In this document: one piece after another, positions 28,804 to 35,670 of the stretch | Layout: each line of letters begins with the position of its first letter | Numbering within the stretch: position 1 is the first letter of the stretch | Source of the DNA: Clostridium sp. BJN0001 | Lineage (GTDB): Bacteria; Bacillota; Clostridia; Clostridiales; Clostridiaceae | DNA: 64,000 nt | Assembly: GCF_022869825.1 (NCBI RefSeq) | Contig: NZ_CP094971.1 | Coordinates: 2,557,501-2,621,500 of the forward strand | Direction: 5' to 3' | Notes under the pieces: model-generated | Told to the model about the DNA's origin: nothing | What the model saw: the letters and a program-made list of their open reading frames with translations, nothing else | Databases searched by the model: none | Position numbers and translations under genes: made by a program

Positions 28804-29425
28804 TAAAAATTATCTGTTTTAATGGATATTGCTCTTCAATATTCGTTTGGAGCTAAAATTACTCAAGTGGTCTGCAAGTTTTAATCCTTGTTTTAATGGA
28901 TATCACTCTTCAATCTTGGGTTTGGATCTCTGTCTATATATTTGCTATATAGTTTTAATCCTTGTTTTAATGGATATCACTCTTCAATTTATATCCTGTT
29001 GTTGCTACAGCTGGGCTTAACGAGTTTTAATCCTTGTTTTAATGGATATCACTCTTCAATCTAATGCGGTACGTGTTTTACCAGTTCCTTGTTCCAGTTT
29101 TAATCCTTGTTTTAATGGATATCACTCTTCAATAATTACCTAAAAACGTGATTTTATTAGATTTTTAAGTTTTAATCCTTGTTTTAATGGATATCACTCT
29201 TCAATCCTACAAATATCTATTAGCAAGAAAATAACAAATAGTTTTAATCCTTGTTTTAATGGATATCACTCTTCAATAATGATAATTCTTATTTATATCC
29301 TCAAGAAATTTTAGAGTTTTAATCCTTGTTTTAATGGATATCACTCTTCAATCTTATGATGGATTGCAACAATCAAAACTGACATTTTGTTTTAATCCTT
29401 GTTTTAATGGATATCACTCTTCAAT
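28804..29425 (-). CRISPR. CRISPR array, leader-distal part (8 repeats plus degenerate end repeat)
   Basis: Eight identical 37-nt repeats, GTTTTAATCC at the left and CACTCTTCAAT at the right on the plus strand, start at 28878, 28952, 29024, 29097, 29169, 29241, 29316 and 29389. A degenerate copy at 28804-28840 (GTTTTAATGGATATTGCTCT in its middle) marks the leader-distal end. Spacers are 35-38 nt. On the minus strand the repeat ends GGATTAAAAC, close to the ATTGAAAC tag common in type I and III repeats, so the array should be transcribed from the minus strand. There is no leader; the array continues at 34058. Confidence 0.97.
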
Positions 29426-29443
29426 ATGGTATTGAACGTCAAA

Positions 29444-29481
29444 TTATTTGATGCTAATATCATAACTTTATTTGATGCTAA
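29444..29481. repeat. Subterminal transposase-site-like repeats, left end
   Basis: TTATTTGATGCTAA occurs twice in direct orientation (29444-29457 and 29468-29481), 24 bp apart, 13 bp inside the left end. A related inverted copy (TTAACATCATATAA, 33994-34007) is 13 bp inside the right end. Such repeats resemble TnsB/MuA-type binding sites. The remaining sequence to 29607 holds nothing recognisable. Confidence 0.65.
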
Positions 29482-29607
29482 AAATGAATATATTCTTCAA
29501 AATCTTCAATGAAAATGAGGCTACTTCGTTACGGTTTATGATGATAAATATTCTGAATATTACAAAAAAATCCACAAATACCTTATTGATATTTGCAGAT
29601 TTTACTT

Positions 29608-30411
29608 TTATCCAAGTTCAGTTTCATTAACAGCAAGCATTATTATGTCACTATCAATTGTATTCATATTTTTTGTATTGCCTATCATAAGGCTAGAATC
29701 ACAGATTTTATTAACAATTCTAGGAACTCCGTTCGAAGCGTTAGCAATTGCTTCAAGAGCGGTATCATCAAAAATATCAGTATTACATTTAGCACCAGTA
29801 AGCTTTGCTAATATATAGTCTTTAGTTTCTGATTTTGTGAGATTATCTAAATTATAATTCATTGTTATACGTTGTCTTAAAGGCTCATTAGCAACTAGCC
29901 TCATGGTATTATTTAACTGAGGAAGCCCCACAAGAAGTACTATTGCACGATCTCTTGAATCCATGTCAAAATTAAAAAGCATTTTTAAATCATTAAGTAT
30001 TCCATTACTTACATAATTAGCTTCATCAATAATTATTACAGGAGTTATACGTTTTTCAACTGAATATCTAGTTATTTCATTTTGGATAATTTTGAAATTA
30101 TCAATTTTTCTGCACATTGGCTCTAGTCCAAGCTGGGCAGCCATATTTTTATAAAATTCTGCAACAGTAAGTGTAGAAAGGGAACTATAAATAACTTTAT
30201 AAAGTGATGAATTAAGGCTATTAGACCAGTTTCTTATTATTGTAGTTTTACCTCGCCCTGGACCTCCGGTCAGGATTCCGAAACCTTTATTATTAAGTAA
30301 ATAATTAAGTCTACAAATAACTTCTTTATAGTCAGAAGTTTCTACTACTATTTCCTTAGAATTTTTTATAAACGGATTAAAATCCATTCCATATCTACTT
30401 ATATAATCCAT
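29608..30411 (-). CDS. ExeA/TnsC-like AAA+ ATPase of the transposon
   Basis: The 267-residue protein has Walker A GGPGRGKTT (about residues 49-57), Walker B VIIIDEAN (about 128-135), a sensor-like VLLVGLPQLNNTMR and the arginine-rich EPLRQRITMNY, matching ExeA-family and TnsC/TniB ATPases. In Tn7- and Mu-like transposons this type of ATPase selects the target and activates the DDE transposase. Its start codon overlaps the stop of the transposase gene by one base, so the two are translationally coupled. Confidence 0.9.
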   Translation of the reverse strand: MDYISRYGMDFNPFIKNSKEIVVETSDYKEVICRLNYLLNNKGFGILTGGPGRGKTTIIRNWSNSLNSSLYKVIYSSLSTLTVAEFYKNMAAQLGLEPMCRKIDNFKIIQNEITRYSVEKRITPVIIIDEANYVSNGILNDLKMLFNFDMDSRDRAIVLLVGLPQLNNTMRLVANEPLRQRITMNYNLDNLTKSETKDYILAKLTGAKCNTDIFDDTALEAIANASNGVPRIVNKICDSSLMIGNTKNMNTIDSDIIMLAVNETELG

Positions 30412-31655
30412 TATTCTTGACCTCCAGTAAGTTTTATTTTTTCCCTTTTTATAACAGAATTATCATGCTTATTTAAAAGCTTTATTTCTGTAAGTTCAGA
30501 AGTGTTTTTATCAACTACATAAATTTTGCTTAAATCAGGTGAATATCTTAGGGTTATTCTTTGTTTTGAGTATCTATAATCAACTTCATATTCTGTTTCA
30601 TCTATCATAACTACGTTATCGGCTGATACTCTTCTTTCATATTCAAGTAAAAAGGAAGTTTCAATTTGTTCATCTGTAAGCCTTTTAATCATGTGAGATT
30701 CCTTGAAAAACCTGTCCTGTGGAGATAGTCCATCTAGAGAAGAATGTATATGCTGATTATAGCTATTAACATATGAAATAAGGCTTATCCTAAGTTCATC
30801 TAAATTATTAAAATCATTCATATTAAGCTGGGACATCCATTGATCTTTTAATGTGCGAAACCACCTTTCAATTTTAGCTTTTGATTGTGGGGTATAGGGT
30901 GCACAATAACTAATAGTTGTACCTATTCTAGCTGCTAAAAGTTCCATTTGCTTGTTCTTATATGAAGCACCATTATCAAAGTTTAAGATTTTAGGTTTCC
31001 CGAATCGTGTAACAGCAGATTTTAAAACAGACATAAGATTTACAAAATTATCATTAAAAAATACATCTATTCCTGTTATGTATCTTGAAGCATCATCAAT
31101 AAGTGCTATTATGTAAACGCGTTTCTTTTTACCATCTACCTTCAAATAAGGTCCAACGCTGCTGTCACCACACCATACTTCATTTATATGAGCACGCTCA
31201 TATCTTTTCATATCTTTATTTTTAGAATATTTATTCTCAAGCTTAAGAACATTAACATACCTATTAATTGTTGAAAGTGAAATATCTCCTTTAACAATAG
31301 TTCCATTGTTAATAAGCTTTTGATAGATAAGTGTTGCTGGGATTCTTGGATATTCTTGTTTTAAATATTTAATCTGTTCTGTAATATCAGAATCTAATTT
31401 ACGTGTTCTTCCAGTGTCGCATCGTTTTACAGGTATGAGTGCCTCAAAGCCCTTATTCTTGTAATTGTAATACCAACGTTCAAGAGTAGCAGCAGCTACC
31501 TTAGTATCTTCACCATCTGGAGTCTGATATACTTTGCCTGCGGCATCTCGGAAAAATTGTTTAACACTTTTATTTTCATCATAAGTACCACTTATCAGAG
31601 GAGCCAAGATTCCGTACCTGAAAAGTGCTATTTCTTTTCTAGTTTTTTCGTCCAT
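30411..31655 (-). CDS. DDE transposase/integrase (TnsB/IS481-like)
   Basis: The 414-residue protein has N-terminal helix-turn-helix segments, an rve-type catalytic core with Asp164 (WCGDSS), Asp227 (LNFDNGA) and Glu263 (KAKIERWF), spacing D-D(35)E, and a C-terminal Mu/TnsB-like beta domain (TEYEVDYRYSKQRITLRY). It would cut and join the transposon ends. It is the middle gene of the three-gene module. Confidence 0.92.
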   Translation of the reverse strand: MDEKTRKEIALFRYGILAPLISGTYDENKSVKQFFRDAAGKVYQTPDGEDTKVAAATLERWYYNYKNKGFEALIPVKRCDTGRTRKLDSDITEQIKYLKQEYPRIPATLIYQKLINNGTIVKGDISLSTINRYVNVLKLENKYSKNKDMKRYERAHINEVWCGDSSVGPYLKVDGKKKRVYIIALIDDASRYITGIDVFFNDNFVNLMSVLKSAVTRFGKPKILNFDNGASYKNKQMELLAARIGTTISYCAPYTPQSKAKIERWFRTLKDQWMSQLNMNDFNNLDELRISLISYVNSYNQHIHSSLDGLSPQDRFFKESHMIKRLTDEQIETSFLLEYERRVSADNVVMIDETEYEVDYRYSKQRITLRYSPDLSKIYVVDKNTSELTEIKLLNKHDNSVIKREKIKLTGGQE

Positions 31656-32289
31656 ATTTTGAAAAAGCCTCCTTTGTTTTATTACAATATAAGCTTATAT
31701 CTACATAAATTAACAGTAAAACTAAGTTATGTGGTTTTACGAAAATAAAATATTATTGATGCATTTAATTTGCATAAATTGTCTTTTAAAGTTTTTTAAA
31801 CATTGCTTTGAAATACTTAAATCTAATGAAATTTTAAATGAAGTAATACGTTCCTTCCAATGCTCTAGATATTGTTTTATTATATAAAAAATATTGCTTT
31901 CATCGATAAATTCATTAGCTATCATAATGGGTTCAAAAGAAGCTTTGGAATTATAAGCATTAATAATTGAAATATGATCACATAAAAGAATTTGAGAATA
32001 AGGTACAATACACTCTGGAAATATAGCATGAGTTTTATTGCAACATGTACACTTTGCTCTAAGAATTGTTATAGATATCTTGCCATCACTGTTTTTAACA
32101 GTTCTCTTGTAATAACCATGCTTTACAAGCTGCCCGGACAATGTCGTCAACTTAGTAGATTAAGCTATGCAAAAATAAATTGAAAGAAATCATTTTTGAT
32201 GTCTATTTTAATTTATCTTAAAAAATGGTACACTAAATAAATCCACTGGATAAAGTGAATTTTAAATATGTATTTATTTATATTTAATA

Positions 32290-33558
32290 TTAAAAACAGG
32301 ATTTAATATTATGATGGTGCTTTTTTCTTGGATGTTTGTTTTTGCGCTCACAAGATCGGTTGCAACGTATTTGTGAGCGTATTTTTATAGCTTTTTCAAG
32401 TATTAATTCTAACAGCTTATTTCTTAATCTAGATTTAACTAATAAAGCTATAATTCGTTTGAATACCTGTCCCAAAATAAAATTCCTATTTGATTGATAT
32501 ATTGAATTTAAATCTTTATCCTTATTATCATTTGATATCGCAGCATCGGCATCTTTTTTTATAAGAGCTGCAATCATCGATAAATAAATAGAAACGTAAA
32601 AATCTTGCTTTATGGCAATTGGCTTAGTACCTGAAAATTCTTCGATTTTAAGACTGCATTTTAATTCTTTATATTTAGATTCAACGCCCCATCTTAAGAA
32701 ATAGAGTTCTTTGAATTTTAAAGGCGTAATAGTATCATCATAGATGTTAGTCACTAAAGTTTCTGTCACCTCATCTGACAGCTTAACTTTTACTACTCTT
32801 ATTTTTTTTATTTCACCTTTAACTTTATATTTTAAAATAAAGTCAGGGGAATCTATTGATTGTGCAAGTTTAAAAGATGTTGATACTCGCATTAAAAATA
32901 GTAATTCCTTGGAATTTAAATAATCAAACATATCATATGAAGGATAGCCTCTATCAAAAATAACAATGCTTTTTCGAGGACAGAATTTATCTCCTATTGA
33001 CTCTATATGTTGTTTTGCAATATGTCTTTCACTTGTCTTATATTTAGTAATTCTAGAATCTACAATAATGTCATTTAATACATCATATAAGGCTGACGCC
33101 GTCGCAATAGCAGTTCTTGTCTTATTTTGATTACTGCTTAATCCAAAATATTCACCACATTCTTTTGTATCTGGCACTTGTAGACTAGTTCCATCTACAG
33201 CTAGAATATTAAAACCATTCCAAGTGTTTAAATTTTTATTTATACTATAAAATTTATCAACAAAAAGTCTGCATAATTCATTAAAGGCTTCTGGTGATAT
33301 ATTTTGTCTTGCCTTAGAAAATGCTTGTTTTGTTATTGACGGAAATTTTAAACATTTATGATCTTCAATAAAATTATCAATTTCAGAAGAGATGGATTTT
33401 CGCAATGCGGAGCAAATAAAATGAACCGTATTTGAAAAGGATAGTTTTCTATTCCTTGAGAATGAGTTACCTAAGCTGTATGCTTCTTTGTACTCACTTG
33501 AAGTAATTAAATCGTTTGTTTCTTTTAAAATTAAAGATAATAATCTAGTATTTTTCAT
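32290..33558 (-). CDS. IS4-family transposase
   Basis: The 422-residue DDE transposase has LAVDGTSLQVP (first Asp), IVIFDRGYPSYD (second Asp) and YFLRWGVESKYKELK, the Y-(2)-R-(3)-E-(6)-K signature of the IS4 family. The frame is intact, with a basic, His-rich C-terminus. Its ribosome site is part of a stem-loop (see 33568-33599), a common safeguard against expression by read-through. Confidence 0.95.
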   Translation of the reverse strand: MKNTRLLSLILKETNDLITSSEYKEAYSLGNSFSRNRKLSFSNTVHFICSALRKSISSEIDNFIEDHKCLKFPSITKQAFSKARQNISPEAFNELCRLFVDKFYSINKNLNTWNGFNILAVDGTSLQVPDTKECGEYFGLSSNQNKTRTAIATASALYDVLNDIIVDSRITKYKTSERHIAKQHIESIGDKFCPRKSIVIFDRGYPSYDMFDYLNSKELLFLMRVSTSFKLAQSIDSPDFILKYKVKGEIKKIRVVKVKLSDEVTETLVTNIYDDTITPLKFKELYFLRWGVESKYKELKCSLKIEEFSGTKPIAIKQDFYVSIYLSMIAALIKKDADAAISNDNKDKDLNSIYQSNRNFILGQVFKRIIALLVKSRLRNKLLELILEKAIKIRSQIRCNRSCERKNKHPRKKHHHNIKSCF

Positions 33559-33567
33559 AATGTAAAA

Positions 33568-33599
33568 CCTCGCTATAAATTTATTTCTCTATAGCGAGG
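33568..33599 (-). promoter_or_regulatory. Hairpin sequestering the IS transposase ribosome site
   Basis: CCTCGCTATA and TATAGCGAGG form a 10-bp stem around a 12-nt loop. On the minus strand the 3' arm contains GCGAGG, the ribosome site 9 nt before the ATG at 33558. Read-through RNA from outside would fold and hide it. Confidence 0.7.
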
Positions 33600-33826
33600 C
33601 TGCAAAATTTTCCACTATTGTCAAGTGTTTTTTTTATTAAATTATCATTTTCTCTTAAGTTGACGACATTGGCTGCCCGGACCTTCCGCAGGAACAAGTA
33701 AGTTTGTGAAAATCTATGTCTTTAATAAATTTATCATAGGATTTTTACGTTAATGACTTGATTTTTGAATCTAAATTAGATATGATTTTTGTATCATAAA
33801 TATTAGTTATCATAGAATTTATGGTT

Positions 33827-33871
33827 AGCAGAGCAACAAAACTTTGGTCGGTGGTGTTGCTCTGCTTTTTT
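33827..33871 (+). terminator. Strong plus-strand terminator in the transposon
   Basis: AGCAGAGCAACA and TGTTGCTCTGCT (12-bp perfect stem) are followed by six T residues on the plus strand. It sits just upstream of the DUF6431-like gene and no plus-strand gene precedes it. Confidence 0.75.
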
Positions 33872-33912
33872 CCTTTCTAAGAATAATATAAAATAATAAT
33901 ATACTAAAAAAG

Positions 33913-33962
33913 GCAAGCATTAAATACTTTGACTAAAATTTAGTCATGCAAATAATGCTTGC
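33913..33962 (-). terminator. Hairpin near the right transposon end
   Basis: GCAAGCATTA and TAATGCTTGC enclose an inner TGACTAAA/TTTAGTCA hairpin. On the minus strand CTTTTTTAG follows, as for an intrinsic terminator. Transcription of the CRISPR array entering the transposon would stop here. Confidence 0.6.
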
Positions 33963-33993
33963 TCTTTATTTATTTTGAAGATATTTAAATTTT

Positions 33994-34007
33994 TTAACAT
34001 CATATAA
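33994..34007. repeat. Inverted subterminal repeat, right transposon end
   Basis: TTAACATCATATAA matches the complement of the left-end repeat at 12 of 14 positions and lies at the same distance (13 bp) from the end. Confidence 0.5.
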
Positions 34008-34057
34008 AATGCTATTCTATAATATGGTATGCCAGAAGGAAAATATATAAGGAGGGA

Positions 34058-35393
34058 GTTTTAATCCTTGTTTTAATGGATATCACTCTTCAATATTGCT
34101 ATTGATAGTGATGGAAAACCATATTCTAGTTTTAATCCTTGTTTTAATGGATATCACTCTTCAATATATTACTCAAGCAAATAATAAGAGAAATAATATG
34201 TTTTAATCCTTGTTTTAATGGATATCACTCTTCAATTTATATATAGAAAGTGGAAGAGATATAGTTCTAGTGTTTTAATCCTTGTTTTAATGGATATCAC
34301 TCTTCAATCTTGTCCTTTTCTTCTTAGAAACTAAATCTACAAAGTTTTAATCCTTGTTTTAATGGATATCACTCTTCAATAGAATCTGTATTTCCTATAT
34401 CTTCTGTTCCTATAAGTTTTAATCCTTGTTTTAATGGATATCACTCTTCAATTACACCAATAGAAATTGATTCTAGCTTAGCCTTAGGTTTTAATCCTTG
34501 TTTTAATGGATATCACTCTTCAATTTGACTAATTTCGTTTGGTTCAATAAGTTTACTTTCTGGTTTTAATCCTTGTTTTAATGGATATCACTCTTCAATC
34601 TGATATAGATAATATAGATAAGCAACTAGGGAAGTTTTAATCCTTGTTTTAATGGATATCACTCTTCAATTAAAAATCATCTACTCTTTAAAAGATCCGT
34701 CTGAATGTTTTAATCCTTGTTTTAATGGATATCACTCTTCAATCTTAGCAATATACCATTTGCTCTTATATTGTCCCCAGTTTTAATCCTTGTTTTAATG
34801 GATATCACTCTTCAATGGTCATTCCATGGGACTTTCTCGGATTATTGTTGAGTTTTAATCCTTGTTTTAATGGATATCACTCTTCAATTTATAGGAATAC
34901 TTTTGCTCCTTTATGCGTAAATAGTTTTAATCCTTGTTTTAATGGATATCACTCTTCAATATATAAGATTTACAAGTGAAGTCCAATCCTTTCCTATAGT
35001 TTTAATCCTTGTTTTAATGGATATCACTCTTCAATTGCATCTACTGCAAATTTTTGTCCTCTATCATAATGTTTTAATCCTTGTTTTAATGGATATCACT
35101 CTTCAATTTGAACCATATCTGATCTAGAATTATTTGTATTATGTTTTAATCCTTGTTTTAATGGATATCACTCTTCAATGAATGTAAAGCCACCGAATAA
35201 GTATAAGGGTACTGTTTTAATCCTTGTTTTAATGGATATCACTCTTCAATGATGGAGAAGTACATACAGGAACTATTTCTACAAGTTTTAATCCTTGTTT
35301 TAATGGATATCACTCTTCAATGCAACAAGAACAGTTGATAGTACAACAAGAACAATGTTTTAATCCTTGTTTTAATGGATATCACTCTTCAAT
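34058..35393 (-). CRISPR. CRISPR array, leader-proximal part (19 repeats)
   Basis: Nineteen copies of the same 37-nt repeat start at 34058, 34129, 34200, 34272, 34344, 34416, 34488, 34563, 34634, 34707, 34780, 34852, 34924, 34999, 35071, 35143, 35214, 35285 and 35357. The 18 spacers are 34-38 nt. All repeats read as identical, which suggests the array was active until recently. The first spacer on the left (34024-34057) is the second part of the spacer cut by the transposon. No cas gene is in the window; the 37-nt repeat and its GGATTAAAAC end fit a type I or III system, subtype undetermined. Confidence 0.98.
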
Positions 35394-35670
35394 AGCAAAA
35401 TTTAATACATCCCGCTGTTTCTAACTGCTCACACCAATTTTGAGACTAGCTTAAAATTCATGTTTTTGATAAATAAAACAGCATAATTGACGCTTTTTTA
35501 TATAGCTTTACATACCTATAACTGCCTCTAAAGTCAGTATTCATCACATATCTAGAAAAATAAAATTATTTTTTCAAAAAATTATATATAATTAATCTCT
35601 CTATCTATATTATACTATTATTTTTTCAGCTATCAACTATATTTAACATTTATAGTAAATATTAAAATAA
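35394..35670 (-). promoter_or_regulatory. Probable CRISPR leader
   Basis: The 277 bp right of the last repeat hold no gene and are very AT-rich (long A/T runs at 35560-35640). As the array reads on the minus strand and its degenerate repeat is at the far left, the leader and promoter should be here. The first 40 bp (AGCAAAATTTAATACATCCC) would touch the first repeat. No exact promoter is claimed. Confidence 0.65.

What the first reader, a model, noticed from the sequence alone, without database searches (positions are those of the whole stretch)
29389..34094. A transposon has split one CRISPR array by inserting inside a spacer
The repeats on both sides (8 left, 19 right) are identical over 37 nt. 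After the repeat ending at 29425 comes ATGGTAT, and before the repeat at 34058 comes ATGGTAT plus 27 nt. Joining them gives a 34-nt spacer, the length of its neighbours. The direct repeat AATATGGTAT at both junctions supports transposition rather than two independent arrays. The cut is only 2-7 bp from a repeat boundary. This opens the possibility that the DDE/ExeA/DUF6431 element uses CRISPR repeats, or proteins bound there, as an attachment site.
Basis: partly seen in the sequence, partly recalled or inferred. Interest (0 to 1): 0.85.

Follow-up and report, generated by a model that had tools for sequence, protein, structure and literature searches.

The report
Transposon inserted inside a CRISPR array
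A small transposon has jumped into a bacterium's CRISPR memory bank and cut it in two; distant cousins of the same transposon were found inside CRISPR banks in other bacteria more often than chance would suggest, although most copies sit elsewhere.

Summary
The split is real. One array (27 identical 37-nt repeats, one leader, one degenerate end; a type I-B cas locus lies elsewhere in the genome) is interrupted by a 4,592-bp insertion at 29430-34021. The true target duplication is 6 bp, ATATGG (last 2 bp of the repeat plus first 4 of the spacer). The insert is a 3,049-bp DDE/AAA-ATPase/DUF6431 transposon with a nested 1,532-bp IS4-family IS. The genome holds 13 near-identical copies; 12 lie outside CRISPR arrays, several in genes, so a strict 'CRISPR attachment site' is not supported.

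The surprise is across genomes. Of 106 copies with both flanks in 32 genomes, 6 lie inside arrays (4 genomes; the other three DDEs only 31-32% identical to this one) and 1 abuts one; about 0.1-0.5 would be expected. In those four genomes, 0 of 102 DDE_Tnp_1 hits lie directly in the mapped arrays, against 6 of 33 copies here. Positions in the arrays are not fixed. A weak array-level preference is plausible but unproven: without the index case it rests on three arrays (P about 0.0003-0.03). IS insertion into CRISPR arrays is already published.

The parts
28878..29425 (-). Leader-distal part of the CRISPR array: 8 repeats, 7 spacers; a degenerate terminal repeat lies just left (ending 28841)
29424..29429 (.). 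Left copy of the 6-bp target-site duplication ATATGG (last 2 bp of repeat + first 4 bp of spacer)
29430..34021 (-). Inserted element, 4,592 bp (3,049 bp without the nested IS and its extra TSD copy); begins TATTGAAC, ends TTCTATA
   Evidence: boundaries shared by 13 copies
29608..30411 (-). AAA ATPase, 267 aa (AAA_22; weakly MuB-like)
30411..31655 (-). DDE transposase, 414 aa (rve domain; nearest solved: transposase of IS5376, and TnsB)
31737..32139 (-). 3' part of the DUF6431 gene, cut by the nested IS (5' part lies at about 33683-33816)
   Evidence: intact gene seen in another copy (L020)
32140..33671 (-). Nested IS4-family insertion sequence, 1,532 bp, transposase 32290-33558, 11-bp TSD at 32129-32139 and 33672-33682
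34022..34027 (.). Right copy of the TSD ATATGG
34024..34057 (-). Complete 34-nt spacer left intact beside the element, parted from its leader-distal repeat
34058..35393 (-). Leader-proximal part of the array: 19 repeats, 18 spacers
35394..35560 (-). CRISPR leader, conserved with the leaders of the other two arrays of the genome; shows transcription runs right to left

Best explanation
A DDE/AAA-ATPase/DUF6431 transposon (IS21/Tn7/Mu-like layout, 6-bp TSD) inserted once at a repeat-spacer junction of an array that shares its leader with the array beside a type I-B cas locus, and parted the 7 leader-distal spacers (8 with the one next to the degenerate repeat) from the leader. Shown: one insertion, one array, a nested IS4-family IS. 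Shown: the family inserts at many unrelated sites, most of them in long reading frames. Supported but not proven: its insertions are over-represented in CRISPR arrays. Inferred: the MuB/TnsC-like ATPase, perhaps with the zinc-ribbon-like DUF6431 protein, settles more often on array DNA because of a general property of arrays (long untranslated, regularly repeated or protein-occupied DNA), not because of a fixed repeat sequence.
For: Exact 6-bp TSD and element ends common to 13 copies. Leader shared by the three arrays. 6 of 106 two-sided copies are inside arrays: window, L144 (TSD ACTATC), L212, L213, L214 (TSD CTATGA; CCTTAT shared between L212 left and L213 right), L224 (TSD CTACCT). Expected under uniform insertion about 0.12-0.46, depending on the assumed array content of 28 genomes. 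Control: of 102 PF01609 hits in the same four genomes none lies directly in the mapped arrays, two only as ISs nested in our element; Fisher P 0.00015 for 6/33, 0.0006 dropping the index, 0.011 dropping the index and counting G969 as one; with hits merged to 96 places and the two nested ones left out, 0.0002, 0.0008 and 0.013. Survival bias looks small: 29 of 48 TSD-intact non-array insertions lie in ORFs of 150 codons or more, against 682 of 960 random flank positions.
Against: 100 of 106 copies are not inside arrays. The four positive genomes were picked for the control because they were positive, which favours this reading. Three of the six cases are one array of one genome. Counted as arrays and without the index case, P is 0.0003-0.012 (0.0008-0.028 with a 1.4-fold survival correction), depending on the assumed array content. 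Five further copies found in a fresh class and others on short contigs showed no array. An IS66-like element also sits in the G720 array, so arrays accept other elements. No fixed position in the repeat unit.
Confidence: 0.55

Rival explanations
1. Ordinary transposition into a dispensable locus: insertion is near random, and arrays merely tolerate it (safe haven).
For: 12 of 13 copies here lie outside CRISPR arrays; TSDs show only a weak composition bias; IS and MITE insertions in CRISPR arrays are on record for other elements.
Against: Gene insertions of this family are hardly purged (29 of 48 in ORFs of 150 codons or more, 682 of 960 at random), so a haven effect should be only about 1.4-fold; 6 of 106 against 0.12-0.46 expected; 0 of 102 control hits directly in the mapped arrays.
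Confidence: 0.38
2. The element uses the CRISPR repeat, or a protein bound at it, as a defined attachment site.
For: In the window and in L144 the cut lies within about 10 bp of a repeat end.
Against: 100 of 106 copies are not inside arrays; in-array cuts also fall mid-repeat (L214, L224, L213 left) and late in a spacer (CCTTAT); repeats of the four arrays differ.
Confidence: 0.03
3. Array insertions are selected because they weaken CRISPR immunity or remove harmful spacers.
For: IS insertions that inactivate cas genes are published (PMC10359306, passages).
Against: Here only the leader-distal spacers are parted from the leader; the two other arrays show no large gap and the cas genes are found. 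No spacer compared matched the element or the fetched loci over its length (spacers of the mapped arrays of the four positive genomes, without the third G000 array).
Confidence: 0.03
4. Two independent arrays flank a transposon; no array was split.
For: None beyond the gap itself.
Against: 6-bp TSD, identical repeats, spacer completed to 34 nt, leader at one end and degenerate repeat at the other.
Confidence: 0.01

Closest known systems
[quoted passage not shown]
   Same: IS copies inside repeats or spacers of a CRISPR array, several positions, recombination between copies (PMC7708916, passages seen)
   Different: Unrelated IS (IS3 family, recalled), one species complex, no ATPase partner (recalled)
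MITE HqIRS37 in a CRISPR spacer of Haloquadratum walsbyi HBSQ001
   Same: Insertion within a spacer; original spacer inferred by removing the insert (PMC3119063, passages seen)
   Different: A MITE in an archaeon; one case in the passages seen
IS21 family (IstA/IstB) and Tn7/Mu-type transposons (TnsB/TnsC, MuA/MuB)
   Same: DDE transposase plus AAA ATPase; DDE profile matches the transposase of IS5376 (an IS21-type element, recalled) and TnsB (E about 1e-9); ATPase weakly matches a 'target DNA activator B' (MuB; E 0.0016); TGT..ACA ends in most relatives
   Different: Third gene is DUF6431; IS481 is the top NCBIfam hit but below its cut-off, and IS21 also below
CRISPR-associated transposons (CAST)
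   Same: Share TnsB/TnsC-like proteins (recalled)
   Different: No cas genes or guide array inside the element; here the array is the target, not the tool

Membership tests
IS21 family | DDE transposase scores above the curated IS21 model cut-off | tested here: not met
   NF033546 67.5 bits against cut-off 160
IS481 family | DDE transposase scores above the curated IS481 model cut-off | tested here: not met
   NF033577 164.5 bits against cut-off 224
Transposons with DDE transposase plus AAA target-selection ATPase (Tn7/Mu/IS21 superfamily) | Adjacent rve-type DDE and AAA ATPase genes | tested here: met
   PF00665 and PF13401 above cut-off, genes overlapping by one base; ATPase found in the representative locus of 33 of 33 genomes, beside the DDE in 32 and about 4 kb off in one (G838)
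Transposons with DDE transposase plus AAA target-selection ATPase (Tn7/Mu/IS21 superfamily) | TG..CA-type ends with short fixed TSD | tested here: met
   6-bp TSD at 52 sites in 12 genomes; ends TGT..ACA in most genomes, TGT..ATA in G510, TAT..ATA in this one
Tn7-like transposons / CAST | TniQ target selector | tested here: inconclusive
   No TniQ named by Pfam or NCBIfam for the four proteins scanned; the DUF6431 model gave only weak structural matches
Tn7-like transposons / CAST | Guide array or cas genes carried by the element | tested here: not met
   Only three long genes in the 3,049-bp element
Type I-B CRISPR array served in trans by the host cas locus | Leader and repeat shared with a cas-adjacent array | tested here: met
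   Leader alignment of three arrays, related repeats; best PADLOC matches Cas1b, Cas2b, Cas4b, Cas8b, Cas7b, Cas5b, Cas3b, Cas6 in L045. Service in trans itself is inferred

The most novel reading that the evidence does not exclude
A widespread family of DDE/ATPase/DUF6431 transposons has a built-in bias to land in CRISPR arrays as a kind of DNA, without a sequence site, so that defence memory banks act as a preferred home for a class of transposon.
Probability: 0.35. Interest if true: 0.8.

Novelty: new variant of a known kind. Interest (0 to 1): 0.5.

Why it matters
IS insertion in a CRISPR array is known case by case. If one transposon family lands in arrays far more often than others, arrays have a physical feature that a target-selection ATPase can read, and mobile elements shape the loss of old spacers. 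It would also give a natural probe of which proteins or structures occupy arrays. If the excess is chance, the case is an ordinary insertion.

Tried and rejected

Rows dropped before counts: L141 and L142 (contig ends) and other contig-edge copies left out of the 106; L201 masked in the background estimate; that estimate (351 of 874,867 flank bp is CRISPR) leaves out the loci inserted in or beside arrays and was used only as one end of the assumed range. The 102 PF01609 hits include pieces of one gene (96 places over 1.5 kb apart) and one hit below the family cut-off; two hits lie within 3 kb outside an array (G383, G969). Array maps: three arrays in G000, one each in G383, G720 and G969; other arrays in the latter three were not sought.

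Full report
What is there. The window lies in a 2.69-Mb single-contig genome (G000) of a genus that also holds genomes whose contigs match, by length and match, records named Clostridium sp. MSJ-8 and D43t1. At 28878-29425 and 34058-35393 stand 8 and 19 identical 37-nt repeats. Two further arrays were seen: 35 repeats with a 3-mismatch repeat at 84 kb, and 34 repeats next to a type I-B cas locus at about 881-892 kb. All three share a leader of over 130 nt; in the window it lies right of the array, so the array is transcribed right to left. The left end carries a degenerate repeat. This is one array.

The insert. Aligning the 13 copies of the element in this genome fixes the ends at 29430 and 34021. 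The duplication is ATATGG, 6 bp; the copies L019, L020 and L023 also have their own 6-bp TSDs, L026 five of six, and the other eight do not match on their own. The cut spans the last 2 bp of the repeat and the first 4 of the spacer, so the whole spacer is still present at 34024-34057. Without the nested IS the element is 3,049 bp with three genes: AAA ATPase, DDE transposase and DUF6431. The nested IS4-family IS breaks DUF6431; one other copy (L021) carries the same IS at the same place.

What kind of element. The DDE is nearest to the IS5376 transposase and TnsB among solved structures, the ATPase weakly to MuB. It passes neither the IS21 nor the IS481 curated cut-off. In one representative locus per genome, the ATPase is found in 33 of 33 genomes (beside the DDE in 32) and DUF6431 in 30 of 33. 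Ends are mostly TGT..ACA with 6-bp TSDs. DUF6431 looks like a zinc-ribbon protein by its conserved cysteines; its role is inferred.

Does it target CRISPR? In this genome 1 of 13 copies is in an array. The others lie, for example, in an acetyltransferase-like gene, a solute-binding-protein-like gene, an AraC-type regulator and an alpha-glucosidase-like gene (names by eye). That alone speaks against an attachment site. I then collected copies from searches of the genus (5 of 68 genomes positive), family (16 of 206), class (13 of 391) and phylum (30 of 398), from two further group searches and the handle search, and fetched flanks. 106 copies in 32 genomes have both flanks, full or partial copies included. 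G539 is outside this count, as both its fetched copies end at contig edges.

Array hits. L144 in G383: 80 repeats, TSD ACTATC, cut starting 4 nt into a spacer. L212, L213 and L214 in G969: a 228-repeat array with three large gaps, each holding a copy of the element; L214 has TSD CTATGA inside the repeat; CCTTAT is shared by L212's left and L213's right flank, so two copies have swapped flanks. L224 in G720: about 56 repeats, interrupted by our element (TSD CTACCT, in the repeat) and by an IS66-like element. The DDEs of G383, G969 and G720 are 31-32% identical to the window's. L203 in G147 ends 39 nt from an array. So five TSD-verified insertion events in four arrays, at different points of the repeat unit.

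Is it more than chance? Array DNA is 0.257% of G000, 0.421% of G969, 0.112% of G720 and 0.158% of G383, the last three lower bounds from one array each; for the other 73 copies I assumed 0.04-0.5%. Expected 0.12-0.46 hits, observed 6. Without the index, 5; counting arrays without the index, 3 (P 0.0003-0.012, or 0.0008-0.028 with a 1.4-fold survival correction). Among 52 TSD-intact sites 4 are in arrays. Control: 102 PF01609 hits (96 places) in the four positive genomes, none directly in the mapped arrays; two lie within arrays only because they are nested inside our element. The genomes were chosen because they were positive, so this control leans towards the claim. Survival bias is small: 29 of 48 non-array sites lie in long ORFs, against 682 of 960 random flank positions.

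Reading. The split is certain. A repeat-sequence attachment site is ruled out as a general rule. An array-level preference is the more interesting reading and fits the counts, but with three arrays besides the index I hold it only as plausible. I have no tested mechanism; a MuB/TnsC-like ATPase choosing array DNA by structure or occupancy is my inference.

Prior art. [quoted passage not shown] None of the passages seen describes a family-wide preference.

Noticed in passing
G000 copies L021, L022, L027, L028, L029, L030: The 6-bp flanks of different copies match crosswise (CTCTGT, CTTAGG, ATGGAT; ATATAG also recurs), against 0.13 off-diagonal matches expected by shuffling; one alpha-glucosidase-like gene seems parted between two copies about 1.1 Mb apart. 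Copies have recombined and rearranged the chromosome, or the assembly was joined wrongly.
   Followed up: partly
window 32140-33671 and the L021 copy: The same IS4-family IS sits at the same place in two copies of the element, so a copy with a broken DUF6431 gene spread, by trans help or by conversion.
   Followed up: partly
G969:C1:1748269-1777334 (L212, L269, L213, L214): A 228-repeat CRISPR array holding three copies of the element, with other insertions nested inside two of those copies and swapped flanks between two of them.
   Followed up: partly
G720:C1 near 1658805 (L224): An IS66-like element (named by eye from its ORFs) with an apparent 8-bp duplication, GAAGGTTT, also interrupts the array of G720.
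   Followed up: partly
G147, L203:8157-8755: A full-length copy ends 39 nt, about one spacer length, from the first of 9 CRISPR repeats and lacks a matching TSD; the other part of an array may have been lost by recombination.
   Followed up: partly
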